Assembly: GCA_016927815.1 (NCBI GenBank)
Contig: JAFGLY010000124.1
Span: 1-56,978 of the forward strand
Source of the DNA: Deltaproteobacteria bacterium
Lineage (GTDB): Bacteria > Myxococcota_A > UBA796 > JAFGLY01
Length of the DNA: 56,978 nucleotides
Direction of reading: 5' to 3'
The notes under the pieces are model-generated. The model did not search any database and was not told the origin of the DNA. It saw nothing but the letters and a program-made list of their open reading frames with translations. Both the position numbers and the translations under genes were made by a program. Below, in pieces: positions 46,381 through 51,602 of this stretch. Each line of letters begins with the position of its first letter. The stretch's first letter is position 1.

Positions 46381-47436
46381 CTACCCTGGGGCGGACGTCT
46401 CGGTCTGCGGCAGGGCCGGCGGCAGGGCGAGCGCGGCCTCGAGCAGTGCGTCCAGGCGGGCCGTCTCGGCCTGGAACGCGGGCATCGTGCTCGGGTCGAG
46501 GTGTCGCCTCAGCGTGCCGTGGTAGTCGCCCGGATCGATCACGCGTTCGCCGCGGACGAGTTGGTAGTGCAGGTGCGGAGCGGTGGAGCGACCGGTGTTG
46601 CCGCTCTTCGCGACGACCTGGCCGGCCGCCACCCGGTCGCCGGGCTTCACGAGGTTCTCGGACAGGTGCAGGAAGTAGGCGTTCGTCCCGTCGTCGAAGC
46701 GGATGTCGAGGCAGTTGCCGTTGCCGCGGAACGACCAGTTCTCGCGGACCACCTTTCCGGCCCGAGGCGTCTTCACCGGCGTGCCCACCGGCGTCTTGAA
46801 GTCCCAGCCCTTGTGCCGCTTGCGGTCCACGAGAGTCTCGGTGATCTGGATGTAGTCGTCGATCGGACCGTCCTGGAGGCGGAACGGGACCTCCGTGCCG
46901 TCCGGGTACCACCAGGAGGCATAGGCGTCGCCCGGTGCCTGGAACCGGCAGGCCTTGAGGTCCTTCCCCAGCTTCTGCGAGTGCAGGATCGCGAGCGGCA
47001 TGTCGATCTCCCCGCTGTCGGAGACCGCGTAGAGGGCCGCCAGCGTGTCGCCCTTCATGAGGTCGGTGCGTACGTCGAGATCCCAGACGAACAGCCGCGA
47101 GAACACGGCCGAGATCGCCGGTCCTGCGTCGCCGAGGGCCTCCTGGAACGTGCGCGAGAGGTTCTCGTGGACGACGCCCTGGACCGCCCGGAAGCCGGAA
47201 GCCGCGAGCGCGGCGTCGGGGGCAGGAGAGACCGTCGCAGCAACCTCCTCGGGGGGGGGCTCGTCGACCCCGGGATCCGTGGCGGCCGGGGGAGCGGGGG
47301 GGGCCTCGACGGCGGCGTCGACCTCGAGGCGGGCGCGCGGCCAGCGGATCGCCATCACCAGGTTCATGGCGAGGCTCGCGCCCAGGAGGGCGTAGAGGAG
47401 CCAGGGCCGGCCGCCAACGGGCGCAGAGGGAGACAT
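46381..47436 (-). CDS. M23 family (LytM-type) peptidase, membrane-anchored
   Basis: 351 residues with one N-terminal helix (about 13-30), a Pro/Ala/Glu linker to about 75, a middle domain (about 78-200) similar to the regulatory part of LytM-type proteins, and the peptidase at about 210-310. Zn ligands are visible: HKGWDFKTPVGTPV (His and Asp), and HLHYQL (His). The catalytic His of the HxH pair is present, so an active cell-wall endopeptidase is expected. The start has only a weak AGG upstream. It is last in the minus-strand operon, 6 nt after the porin gene, which suggests envelope remodelling linked to the porin/BMC group. Confidence 0.92.
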   Translation of the reverse strand: MSPSAPVGGRPWLLYALLGASLAMNLVMAIRWPRARLEVDAAVEAPPAPPAATDPGVDEPPPEEVAATVSPAPDAALAASGFRAVQGVVHENLSRTFQEALGDAGPAISAVFSRLFVWDLDVRTDLMKGDTLAALYAVSDSGEIDMPLAILHSQKLGKDLKACRFQAPGDAYASWWYPDGTEVPFRLQDGPIDDYIQITETLVDRKRHKGWDFKTPVGTPVKTPRAGKVVRENWSFRGNGNCLDIRFDDGTNAYFLHLSENLVKPGDRVAAGQVVAKSGNTGRSTAPHLHYQLVRGERVIDPGDYHGTLRRHLDPSTMPAFQAETARLDALLEAALALPPALPQTETSAPG

Positions 47437-47442
47437 GCGCGC

Positions 47443-48705
47443 CTAGAACAGAAGCTGGGTCTGGAGGGTGCCGGCGAGGCTGAAGTCGGATTCGGAACCC
47501 CCCGCTCGGGAGGCGCCGATCTCCGCCTTCACGTTGGCCGCGTGGCCCTGGTACCACCAGGCCAGGCCGCCGAGGATCGCCAGGTAGTCGGAGGCCTCGG
47601 CGTCGGACACGTCGTACATCTCGGCACAGAGGAGCGGTTCCCAGGTGCCGATGCGGTACCCGCCCTCCACGAACCCGCCCATGCCGCTCATGGGCTGGAT
47701 CGCACCCCTCGCGGAATCGACGAGGACGGAGGCGTCCCCGTGGTCATACCGGTAGAAGGCGGCCTGCGCGTTCACGGCCCGCTCGCCGCCCTCCAGGGGA
47801 AGGTCGGCGTAGACGTCGGCAGCGAGACCCAGGTACGCCTCGGTGGACCACCGATCGTCCAAGGGGTCCGTGAGGTCGTGCGGGTCCACCGCGTAGAACG
47901 CATCGGCCTGCCAGTCGGCGGAGAGGCCCACGGAAAGGACCCGCTTGGGCGTGACGACCCGCTTGCCGTCCGTCTTGAGCCCGGCACCCTTGTAGAAGTA
48001 GCCTGCGGCTCCGGGTCCGCCCTCGGCATCGAAGACGTTGTAGACCAGCCGTCCCGTGACGCGGGGGAGGTCGGACGGGTTGAGGAGGCCGCGCGGGTCG
48101 GTATCGGGGATACCGTCCTCGTCGGTGTCCTGCAGTTGGGCGCCGTAGCCGCTCTGCACGCCGTTGGTGAGGGCGAGGCGGTACTCCACCTGCTTCGCGA
48201 TCCTGCCGCGCGCCATGACGCCCGAGTCGCGCCAGATCTTGTGGGAGCCAGCGGGGTACTTGAGGAGCGCGGAGTGGTAGTCGCTCATGAGGAGCGAGGT
48301 GGCCCCCTGGGTGCCGTGGCGGGAGAACGGGAGGAGCAGCATCCCGACGTCGATCTGCAACTCGGGCGCGACGTCGTACTCCACCCAGGCGTCCTGGACG
48401 AAGACCATGGGCGTCCAGTCCCCGCTGCGACCCATGTTGGGGCTGTCCGTCTCGAAGAAGAAGTAGACGCGGTCGGTGACCTGGCCCGAGAGGAGCACGC
48501 GGGCCCGGCGCAGGAACGGGGTGTAGGCCCACCCGTCCTTGGTGTAGGTGCCGTCCTGGTCGAAGCGGACCTGGGGTTGGAGGAGCAGGCCCACCTGGGC
48601 CCAGGTGTCGTCCGAGATGGCGACCCGGGCCCCGGCCAGGGCTGGAGAAGACCCTGCGAGGGCCGCGAGGAGGACGAACCCGGGGAGGAGAGGCGCACGA
48701 GACAT
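47443..48705 (-). CDS. OprP/O-like porin
   Basis: 420 residues with signal peptide ending ALA-GA (about residue 25) and C-terminal ...TLQTQLLF ending in Phe, as required for outer-membrane assembly. AGGAG precedes the ATG by 5 nt. Alternating amphipathic beta strands run throughout (RFDQDGTYTKDGWAYTPFLRRARVLLSG, FFETDSPNMGRSGDW, DVGMLLLPFSRHGTQG), with the pattern of phosphate-selective porin O/P (Pfam Porin_O_P type). A Ca-binding-like DTDEDGIPDTDPRG occurs in a periplasmic or extracellular loop. It would allow anions or small solutes through. It lies 13 nt after the BMC gene and 6 nt before the M23 gene. Confidence 0.88.
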   Translation of the reverse strand: MSRAPLLPGFVLLAALAGSSPALAGARVAISDDTWAQVGLLLQPQVRFDQDGTYTKDGWAYTPFLRRARVLLSGQVTDRVYFFFETDSPNMGRSGDWTPMVFVQDAWVEYDVAPELQIDVGMLLLPFSRHGTQGATSLLMSDYHSALLKYPAGSHKIWRDSGVMARGRIAKQVEYRLALTNGVQSGYGAQLQDTDEDGIPDTDPRGLLNPSDLPRVTGRLVYNVFDAEGGPGAAGYFYKGAGLKTDGKRVVTPKRVLSVGLSADWQADAFYAVDPHDLTDPLDDRWSTEAYLGLAADVYADLPLEGGERAVNAQAAFYRYDHGDASVLVDSARGAIQPMSGMGGFVEGGYRIGTWEPLLCAEMYDVSDAEASDYLAILGGLAWWYQGHAANVKAEIGASRAGGSESDFSLAGTLQTQLLF

Positions 48706-48718
48706 GGGAACTCCTGGA

Positions 48719-49435
48719 CTACCGACTGTAGGAACGCTCGTCGTGGACGGCGCTGGACGGGTGCTCGTCCAGCTCCTGGTTGAGCTTCTGGAGGATGGAC
48801 AGGGCGGCGGCCGCAGCGGAGTCGATCTCGGACTCGCTGCCGGACAGGACGAGGCGGCCCGTGGCCCCGAACGGGCGGACGTGGATGAGCTTGACGTCCG
48901 CAGCCTTGAGGGCCTCGTTGCAGGCGATGACGAGGTATGCGGCGGGGGTGGTCTCGAGCACGAACACCGACTCGTTGGCCAGCACCATGTACCCGCGAGA
49001 CGTGCCCGTGAAGGAGATGGCGTGGTCCTGCTCGATACCGCGGATGATCATGTTCGTGAGGATCTCGATCCGGGCGCGGTCGTACCGGGTGAGACCGGTC
49101 TGGCGCAGCACCGCCTCGCCGGCCTCGATGACCTCACCCTGGTCGGGATGCTGGATCTGCATCATGCCGAAGTGGCGCTCGGTGACGACGGATCCGAGGC
49201 GGACGTTGGTGCTCTTCAGCGCCAGGTCGATCATCCGGTGGATCTCCATGGCCGGCGCGAGCTCGATCAGGAGGGCCGCGTCGTGCTCGGAGGGGTCGTA
49301 CACCCGGTTGTCCTTGGCGATGAACTGGGCGAGCTGAGGCTGCAACCGGTCCACGAACACGAACGTCCGAAGCTCGAACCGCGTGCCCTCGGGGATCGGC
49401 TGGGTCGTGATCGTGGGGACCAGGGGGGCGGACAT
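48719..49435 (-). CDS. Tandem BMC-domain (BMC-T-like) shell-type protein
   Basis: 238 residues; GAGAGG precedes the ATG by 5 nt. Two BMC folds are visible: residues 52-112 (AALLIELAPAMEIHRMIDLA, with NVRLGSV) and 147-218 (RGYMVLANESVFVLETTPAA, then ACNEALKAADVKLIHVRPFG and GATGRLVLSG). The phrases K-x-x-N-V-R-L and KAADVKLI align with the BMC signature of pfam BMC. Single chains with two BMC domains form trimeric pseudohexamers of the microcompartment shell. The N-terminal 45 residues are an unassigned extension (FELRTFVFVDRLQPQLAQFI). No BMC-H, BMC-P or cargo enzyme lies in the window. It is cotranscribed with the FG-GAP lipoprotein and porin genes. Confidence 0.75.
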   Translation of the reverse strand: MSAPLVPTITTQPIPEGTRFELRTFVFVDRLQPQLAQFIAKDNRVYDPSEHDAALLIELAPAMEIHRMIDLALKSTNVRLGSVVTERHFGMMQIQHPDQGEVIEAGEAVLRQTGLTRYDRARIEILTNMIIRGIEQDHAISFTGTSRGYMVLANESVFVLETTPAAYLVIACNEALKAADVKLIHVRPFGATGRLVLSGSESEIDSAAAAALSILQKLNQELDEHPSSAVHDERSYSR

Positions 49436-49466
49436 CGGGCCTCTCGGGTGGAGGCGCCCTGTAACG

Positions 49467-50720
49467 TCAGAAGGGAGCGACCGCGACGTTCCAGGTGATG
49501 GTCCCGGGCGACAGGCGGCCGAGGCGCGTGCGGCCCCAGGAGGTCGTGGGCGCGTTCCAGGCGTATCGGACCAGCTCCTCCTGATCGTCCGAGGCCACGT
49601 AGATCTCCGGCGTGCCGTCTCCGTCCAGGTCCGCGGCGACAGCGGCGTGCTCGTAGCCGCCGGAGTTGGGGTCGATACAGGTGGCCGTCCAGGGCCCCTC
49701 CACCGCCTTGCCCTTGCGATCGAGGATCCAGACGCCGGTCTTCATGGCCGAGGCCACCAACTCGACCTCGCCGTCGCCGTCGAAGTCGCCCGGCACCAGG
49801 AAGCGGGTCTGCCGATCCTGGATCGTGGCCACCACCTCGTGCGTCCAGCGTCCCTCGCGACCGGGCCGGTAGAGGCGAATCTCCACGGGCTTGACGATGC
49901 GCTCCGCGGGACCGAGCGCGGCCTCCAGCACCACGAACAGCTCGCTCTTCCCGTCTCCGTCCACGTCGTGAGCCAGGATCTCCTTGGCGTGGGTATCCTC
50001 GGCCTGCTCCACGAAGGAGCGGACGTACGTGGATCCGTCCCAACGGTACATCACCACCGCTCCCTTCTGGGAGGCGTCCGCCCGGTTGCGGGCGCTCGGG
50101 GTGGCAAAGAACTCGTTTCGCCCGTCCCCGTCCACGTCGCCGATCTCGATCTCGTGCACGAAGGTGTCGGATTGGGGGTCGAGCTCCGTGACCGGGCGGC
50201 CCTCCACCTCGGGGTCCATGACGGCCACCACCCCGTGGTCGTGGGTGGCCATCACGAACTCGTCCCGGCCGTCCCCGTCCACGTCACCGACCTCGAGATC
50301 CCTCAAGCGGTTGAAGCGTCCACCCCAGGTGCGGCTCCAGAGCGTCTCCTGGTGCCAGGCCGTGCCGTCCCAGGTCCGGCGCTTGAGCAGGGCCTTCTCC
50401 CCGCCGATCGTGAGCAGTGCGCCCTCGTGGGGCAAAGCCTTGTGGAACACGTTGGAGTCGGGGTCCTCCAGGCGCGTGGCCTCCCACCCGCGCGGGGTCT
50501 CCTGCCAGAACTGGAGCCGGGCGGGACCGGGCTTGGGCTTGCCGTCCGGTCCGTCCTCGAACCACGCGATGGAGAGCACGAGCGCGTGCGTGCGATCGGG
50601 CAGGAGGGCCTCCTCGACCTGACCGGCCGCTGCAGGAATGGCGGGAGGCGGGGCGGCGGGGGCAGGTTCGGGGCTGCCGCTGCAGGCTCCCAGGAAAATA
50701 GCGAAGGGAGAGAGAATCAT
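49467..50720 (-). CDS. FG-GAP/VCBS-repeat lipoprotein
   Basis: 417 residues; AAAGGAG lies 7 nt before the ATG at 50720. A short signal peptide ends in LGAC (Cys13), followed by an Ala/Pro linker. Blades of FG-GAP type repeat D-x-D-G-D-G-x-x-E-x-x-x-x-x (GDVDGDGRDEFVMATHDHG, GDVDGDGRNEFFATPS, HDVDGDGKSELFVVLE, GDFDGDGEVELVASA, ADLDGDGTPEIYVAS) and should make a calcium-binding seven-bladed propeller. Anchored in the outer membrane, it probably binds a ligand or partner. It is first in the operon with BMC, porin and M23 genes and is divergent from ZIP (123 bp between starts). Confidence 0.92.
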   Translation of the reverse strand: MILSPFAIFLGACSGSPEPAPAAPPPAIPAAAGQVEEALLPDRTHALVLSIAWFEDGPDGKPKPGPARLQFWQETPRGWEATRLEDPDSNVFHKALPHEGALLTIGGEKALLKRRTWDGTAWHQETLWSRTWGGRFNRLRDLEVGDVDGDGRDEFVMATHDHGVVAVMDPEVEGRPVTELDPQSDTFVHEIEIGDVDGDGRNEFFATPSARNRADASQKGAVVMYRWDGSTYVRSFVEQAEDTHAKEILAHDVDGDGKSELFVVLEAALGPAERIVKPVEIRLYRPGREGRWTHEVVATIQDRQTRFLVPGDFDGDGEVELVASAMKTGVWILDRKGKAVEGPWTATCIDPNSGGYEHAAVAADLDGDGTPEIYVASDDQEELVRYAWNAPTTSWGRTRLGRLSPGTITWNVAVAPF

Positions 50721-50843: not shown

Positions 50844-51602
50844 ATGCCTGTCCTCGCCTGGATCGTCCTGTCCGGTCTCCTCATGTCGAGCCTCGCCCTG
50901 GTCGGGTCCCTCACCCTGCTCTTGCCGGACCGGACGTTCCGGGCTCTCGTGCTCCCGTTGGTGGCCCTGTCCGCCGGCAGCCTCATCGGCGGCGCGCTGT
51001 TCCACCTCCTGCCCGCCTCGATCCACGACATGGAGGGCATCGCGCCCTTCGTCTGGACCCTGGTCGGCTTCGCCACGCTCTTCGTCCTCGAGCAGTTCCT
51101 CCACTGGCACCACTGCCACCGACCCATGAGCGAGCACCGTGCGCCCCTCGGCTGGTTCATCCTGGTCGCGGACGGGATCCACAACTTCGTGGGCGGGTTG
51201 GCGTGCGCAGGAGCCTTCCTCGTGGACGTGCGGCTCGGCATCGTCACCTGGATCGTAGAGGCTGCCCACGAGGTGCCCCAGGAGCTGGGCGACTTCGGGA
51301 TTCTCATCCACGCCGGCTGGTCGAAGCGTAGGGCGCTGGTCTTCAACCTGCTCTCCGGCCTCACCTACCTGGCGGGCGGACTGGTGGCCTGGGCGGTGTC
51401 GCGGTCGCTCGACGTTACGTTCCTCATGGCCTTCGGAGCCGGGAACTTCCTCTACATCGCCGCAGCCGACCTCATCCCCGAGATCAAGCAGGAAGCGCGG
51501 GGCGTGCGGGCGGTGGTGCACTTCCTGTCCTTCGCCACGGGCGTCCTCATGCTCCTGGGCCTGCGCCTCCTCCTGCCCGAGTCCATGCACGCAGGCGGGT
51601 AG
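50844..51602 (+). CDS. ZIP family metal transporter
   Basis: 252 residues with about eight helices. The family's two metal-binding helices are clear: VADGIHNFVGGLACAGAF (HNxxxG) and EAAHEVPQELGDFGIL (HExPxExGD), which bind Zn2+/Fe2+. The cytoplasmic His-rich loop before them (HWHHCHRPMSEHR) is typical. GAGGT upstream of the ATG is separated by 8 nt, longer than normal. It imports divalent metal (Zn most often; Mn or Fe possible). It is divergent from the FG-GAP gene (123 bp between starts); a Zur-type site is not recognisable there, and the only repeat I see is GTATCCG/CGGATAC at 50750-50817 with a long spacer. Confidence 0.93.
   Translation: MPVLAWIVLSGLLMSSLALVGSLTLLLPDRTFRALVLPLVALSAGSLIGGALFHLLPASIHDMEGIAPFVWTLVGFATLFVLEQFLHWHHCHRPMSEHRAPLGWFILVADGIHNFVGGLACAGAFLVDVRLGIVTWIVEAAHEVPQELGDFGILIHAGWSKRRALVFNLLSGLTYLAGGLVAWAVSRSLDVTFLMAFGAGNFLYIAAADLIPEIKQEARGVRAVVHFLSFATGVLMLLGLRLLLPESMHAGG

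What the first reader, a model, noticed from the sequence alone, without database searches (positions are those of the whole stretch)
46381..50720. Orphan tandem-BMC protein in an envelope operon
A two-BMC-domain protein (48719-49435) sits in a tight minus-strand operon with an FG-GAP lipoprotein, an OprP-like porin and an M23 peptidase (gaps 31, 13 and 6 nt). No other shell gene, encapsulation peptide or cargo enzyme is nearby. A BMC-T fold tied to outer-membrane proteins could be a satellite shell protein of a distant locus, or a trimer reused as a cytoplasmic or envelope scaffold, which would be a new use of the fold.
Basis: partly seen in the sequence, partly recalled or inferred. Interest (0 to 1): 0.68.

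Follow-up and report, generated by a model that had tools for sequence, protein, structure and literature searches.

The report
Satellite shell-pore gene of a microcompartment
The gene is an ordinary gated shell-pore protein of a bacterial microcompartment whose other shell and enzyme genes lie elsewhere in the same genome; only its position behind an outer-membrane lipoprotein gene is unusual, and that position is shared by one sister genus.

Summary
In detail: 48719-49435(-) encodes a tandem-BMC protein in a tight minus-strand run with an FG-GAP lipoprotein, a porin and an M23 peptidase. It is orphan only locally. The same draft genome carries BMC-H, BMC-P and an aldehyde dehydrogenase with an encapsulation-peptide-like N terminus (contig C8), PduS plus a PduT-type BMC-T (C142), and a DeoC aldolase with a similar N-terminal helix (C170). 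Sequence, predicted fold and an intact Glu-Arg gate make it a gated double-trimer type (BMC-T-dp; CsoS1D/CcmP/HO-5816). Of 31 relatives at 59-81% identity, 23 lie beside other microcompartment genes; all seven isolated copies come from genomes with pentamer genes elsewhere. The FG-GAP gene is core to the order (57 of 63 genomes, including 17 of 19 with no BMC gene). The FG-GAP/BMC-T/porin order is kept only in the one other family member held, and M23 is not part of it. Best reading: a satellite locus of a dispersed deoxyribose-phosphate (HO/SPU-like) metabolosome. Reuse as an envelope scaffold has no support. Whether co-expression with envelope genes tunes shell permeability is open.

The parts
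48719..49435 (-). BMC-T-dp shell protein (gated double-stacking trimer type), 238 aa
   Evidence: PF00936 5e-12; HO-5816 1e-50, CsoS1D 7e-45; AlphaFold2 model pLDDT 80 and Foldseek top hits CsoS1D, HO-5816, CcmP
49175..49180 (-). codons of the pore-gate pair Glu86-Arg87
   Evidence: invariant in 22 relatives; aligned with the ER of CsoS1D and HO-5816; gate role from CcmP Glu69-Arg70 (PMC5853799)
49467..50720 (-). FG-GAP repeat lipoprotein (lipobox LGAC near the N terminus), 417 aa; core gene of the order
   Evidence: PF13517 5.5e-27; ortholog in 57 of 63 genomes
47443..48705 (-). outer-membrane porin-like protein, 420 aa
   Evidence: ExtI porin model 1.7e-11, below its cut-off; found in 4 of 63 genomes of the order
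46381..47436 (-). M23 peptidase, 351 aa; same run, but not conserved with it
   Evidence: PF01551 6.9e-27; replaced by a T2SSE ATPase gene in G001
50844..51602 (+). ZIP metal transporter, divergent from the run; neighbour kept in G001
   Evidence: PF02535 9.3e-33; 65% identical gene in the same place in G001

Best explanation
The gene is a satellite locus, holding a single BMC-T-dp gene, for a metabolosome whose other genes are scattered over the genome. The protein is expected to form two stacked trimers with a large gated pore (Glu86-Arg87) that fills one tile position of the shell and passes larger metabolites, probably sugar phosphates or cofactors. [quoted passage not shown] In this family of bacteria the gene, related to those of SPU-type loci, now sits behind a core FG-GAP lipoprotein gene and ahead of a porin, and is probably transcribed with them. 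Shown: gene identity, predicted fold, gate residues, and the other shell and enzyme genes in the genome. Inferred: assembly into one shell, co-transcription, substrate, and any benefit of the position.
For: Other shell genes in the genome: BMC-H C8, PduT-type BMC-T C142, BMC-P C8. Aldehyde dehydrogenase with an amphipathic N terminus next to BMC-P. PduS next to the PduT-type BMC-T. DeoC with an encapsulation-peptide-like N terminus in G000 and G001. 23 of 31 relatives lie beside BMC-H, BMC-P or aldehyde dehydrogenase genes. All seven isolated copies come from genomes with pentamer genes elsewhere. Gate residues invariant. Fold matches CsoS1D, HO-5816, CcmP. The published catalog describes HO genomes with a distant DeoC carrying an EP-like extension, and satellite shell loci (PMC8217296).
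Against: The main locus of this genome is cut by a contig end at C8, so only one BMC-P and part of the aldehyde dehydrogenase are seen, and no PduL was found. Co-assembly and co-transcription were not tested. The draft is a set of contigs, so the true distance to the main locus is unknown; it is at least several tens of kb on one side only if C110 and C8 are not neighbours.
Confidence: 0.9

Rival explanations
1. The position is functional: co-transcription with an outer-membrane lipoprotein, a porin and perhaps a metal transporter couples substrate uptake to shell permeability, so that more pore tiles are made when the substrate is imported. This refines the best explanation.
For: ZIP, FG-GAP, BMC-T-dp and porin stay together in two genera although the flanks differ. 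Gaps are 31 and 13 nt. Tuning of shell permeability is the published idea for satellite shell genes (PMC8217296).
Against: Only two genomes of the family are held. The FG-GAP gene is core to the order with or without BMC genes and looks solitary in most regions inspected. The porin in the block of G001 is only 38% identical, less than another porin of that genome at 45%. No known link of these envelope genes to deoxyribose or DNA.
Confidence: 0.15
2. Neutral placement: the gene landed by chance behind a constitutively expressed core lipoprotein gene and is kept there because expression is good enough. Also compatible with the best explanation.
For: Isolated BMC-T-dp genes of the same clade sit among unrelated genes in other genomes (L020, L035, G063). 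The FG-GAP gene is core to the order and mostly solitary.
Against: The block is kept in two genera while flanking genes changed.
Confidence: 0.75
3. The tandem-BMC protein has left the shell and serves as a scaffold or pore in the cytoplasm or envelope together with the lipoprotein and the porin.
For: Only the gene neighbourhood.
Against: Shell, enzyme and aldolase genes elsewhere in the genome. Gate pair and K74/K177 invariant. No signal or membrane segment: best 19-residue hydropathy 1.18, inside the fold. M23 not in the block in the sister genus. FG-GAP gene present in 17 genomes without BMC genes.
Confidence: 0.02

Closest known systems
HO BMC of Haliangium ochraceum, with BMC-T-dp proteins HO-5816 and HO-3341
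   Same: Same protein type and fold. BMC-H, BMC-P and aldehyde dehydrogenase are 85-92%, 56-69% and 57-64% identical to genes in HO-like main loci of the same order. A DeoC with an EP-like extension lies away from the main locus, as the catalog reports for some HO genomes (PMC8217296).
   Different: The BMC-T-dp here groups with SPU-type genes, not with HO-5816. It lies behind an envelope gene, not beside BMC-H.
SPU (sugar phosphate utilization) BMC loci
   Same: Closest BMC-T-dp relatives lie in loci with DeoC, RpiB, PduS and PduT-type BMC-T; PduS and PduT of this genome are 56-68% identical to those in such loci.
   Different: Here the genes are dispersed over at least four contigs, and no RpiB was searched for in the genome.
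Satellite BMC loci (for example CcmK3/K4 of beta-carboxysomes)
   Same: Shell gene alone, away from the main locus, in a genome with other shell genes (PMC4207490, PMC8217296).
   Different: The neighbours here are envelope genes.
CsoS1D / CcmP carboxysome pore proteins
   Same: Two permuted BMC domains, Glu-Arg gate, 38-46% identity over the fold.
   Different: Not in a carboxysome context; below the CcmP equivalog cut-off.

Membership tests
BMC-T-dp shell protein | two BMC (PF00936) domains of the CsoS1D/CcmP/HO-5816 fold | tested here: met
BMC-T-dp shell protein | conserved Glu-Arg pore-gate pair | tested here: met
   E86-R87, invariant in 22 sequences (PMC5853799)
BMC-T-dp shell protein | two trimers stacked face to face | not testable with these tools
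   only a monomer was modelled
Satellite BMC locus | shell gene(s) of only one domain type (PF00936 or PF03319), no complete set at the place | tested here: met
Satellite BMC locus | a main locus with BMC-H and BMC-P elsewhere in the genome | tested here: met
   C8 BMC-H and BMC-P with an aldehyde dehydrogenase, cut by the contig end
HO-type BMC | triplet of BMC-P genes | tested here: inconclusive
   one BMC-P in this genome, whose locus is cut; in G001 three BMC-P-like ORFs are called
HO-type BMC | HO-5816-like BMC-T-dp | tested here: not met
   window gene groups with SPU-type genes, 100/96
SPU-type BMC | DeoC (PF01791) and RpiB (PF02502) in the locus | tested here: inconclusive
   DeoC present on another contig with an EP-like N terminus; RpiB not searched in the genome
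Beta-carboxysome CcmP | NCBIfam NF053796 equivalog cut-off of 340 bits | tested here: not met
   174 bits

The most novel reading that the evidence does not exclude
Transcription of a gated shell pore together with outer-membrane uptake genes links import of a substrate to the permeability of the microcompartment, a regulatory coupling not described in the papers searched here.
Probability: 0.15. Interest if true: 0.5.

Novelty: new member of a known kind. Interest (0 to 1): 0.22.

Why it matters
It shows a shell-pore gene that has settled in an unrelated operon while the other organelle genes persist elsewhere, and suggests that a shell can be built from genes of two locus types (HO-like core, SPU-like pore). 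It also cautions that 'orphan' BMC genes on single contigs are likely satellites. If the envelope coupling were real, it would give a simple handle on how cells tune shell permeability.

Tried and rejected
PduL search in the genome: none. Search for the missing half of the aldehyde dehydrogenase: not found in the assembly. A class II aldolase like the one at the end of the G001 main locus: only a 41% identical gene on contig C215, context not read. BMC genes on separate contigs in other families of the order were suspected to be the same kind of satellite; the ones read are EutL-type, with EutB beside the one checked by profile, not BMC-T-dp. M23 as a conserved partner: rejected, absent in the sister genus. 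Wider conservation of the envelope run: none seen around 31 relatives of the shell gene or in 13 FG-GAP or porin regions of the order and sister genome. Promoter and terminator scan: uninformative. Literature search for shell protein with porin, outer membrane and satellite: no paper.

Full report
Observation. The window is contig C110 of a 4.0 Mb, 216-contig draft that is 97% complete. The four minus-strand genes are at the stated coordinates with gaps of 31, 13 and 6 nt. The 238-aa product matches PF00936 at 5e-12 with two stretches. It matches the CcmP model at 3e-51, below its equivalog cut-off, and HO-5816 and CsoS1D in the PDB at 1e-50 and 7e-45. An AlphaFold2 model (mean pLDDT 80) finds CsoS1D, HO-5816 and CcmP at the top of the PDB by fold (TM-score by target length 0.85-0.89). 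The porin is only weakly like OprP or ExtI.

What kind of BMC-T. The pore-gate pair Glu-Arg, known from CcmP Glu69-Arg70 (PMC5853799), is E86-R87 here and is invariant in 22 sequences, as are lysines 74 and 177, which I place at the lateral edges from general knowledge of the fold. There is no signal peptide or membrane segment. Sequence and model thus support a gated double-stacking trimer, BMC-T-dp, that can still tile; the stacking itself was not modelled.

Not an orphan in the genome. PF00936 also hits C8:896-1123(-), a BMC-H, and two domains at C142:32001-32510(+), a PduT-type BMC-T; PF03319 hits C8:559-807(-), a BMC-P. BMC-P is followed by an aldehyde dehydrogenase cut by the contig start, with the amphipathic N terminus MQRDQVSEIVERVLARV. 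On C142 a PduS-like protein precedes the PduT-type shell gene. On C170 a DeoC (TIGR00126, 263 bits) begins MTGELDALVERIVAQVRARV, an encapsulation-peptide-like helix, and is followed by ORFs that read as phosphopentomutase and thymidine phosphorylase (the last two named by eye, not profile-tested). The sister genome G001 repeats the set on C5, C454 and C125, with the same kind of helix on DeoC. No PduL was found in the window's genome.

Relatives. Of these 31, 23 lie within about 10 kb of BMC-H, BMC-P or aldehyde dehydrogenase genes, mostly with PduS, PduT-type BMC-T and DeoC, and L022 sits next to DeoC. Seven are isolated (L008, L017, L020, L023, L032, L035, G063), several of them near contig ends. 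All six of those genomes that were searched have several BMC-P genes elsewhere, and the seventh, G001, has its locus on C5.

History. In the other families of the order the BMC-T-dp directly upstream of BMC-H is only 41-49% identical to this one and groups with HO-5816, whereas the window gene and its G001 relative group with genes from SPU-type loci, several of them Myxococcota (support 100/96). In G001 no BMC-T-dp hit lies upstream of BMC-H, and in the window's genome the upstream gene is a UbiE-like methyltransferase. So in this family a SPU-type BMC-T-dp, kept as a satellite, seems to stand in for the HO-type one. That substitution is an inference.

The envelope run. The FG-GAP gene has one clear ortholog in most genomes of the order, 57 of 63, including 17 of the 19 without any PF00936 match. 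In the regions inspected it has unrelated neighbours and mostly looks like a single gene. The porin is found in 4 of 63. ZIP, FG-GAP, BMC-T-dp and porin were seen together only in the window's genome and in G001; M23 is replaced there by a T2SSE ATPase gene. Two genes just beyond ZIP in the window lie about 20 kb away in G001. So the block is kept while its flanks changed, but it rests on two genomes.

Mechanism. Shell genes, a core aldehyde dehydrogenase and DeoC with targeting-like helices point to a compartment that degrades deoxyribose phosphate from DNA or nucleosides, as proposed for SPU and suggested for HO BMCs (PMC8217296; PMC4207490). The satellite protein would be its large gated pore. 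Whether co-transcription with envelope genes matters is not known; separate tuning of shell permeability is the published idea for satellites.

Verdict. A new member of a known kind. The satellite idea is supported; the envelope-scaffold idea is not.

Noticed in passing
L077:7443-10380 (G046:C2); likely also L080 and L081: Other genomes of the order carry a EutB plus EutL-type BMC-T module away from the main locus, like the 'EUT module' satellites reported for HO BMCs (PMC8217296).
   Followed up: partly
L099:1369-3687 and L098 (G000:C170, G001:C125): DeoC with an encapsulation-peptide-like N-terminal helix, followed by ORFs that read as phosphopentomutase and thymidine phosphorylase, suggests that nucleosides feed the microcompartment.
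   Followed up: partly
window 49467-50720: A single-copy FG-GAP lipoprotein is near-universal in this order (57 of 63 genomes) and has no assigned function: a candidate core surface protein.
   Followed up: partly
L105:9629-10291, L020:9995-10624, L035:7891-8562: Isolated BMC-T-dp genes of the same clade occur among unrelated genes in several other genomes, so single-gene satellites of this pore may have arisen more than once.
   Followed up: partly
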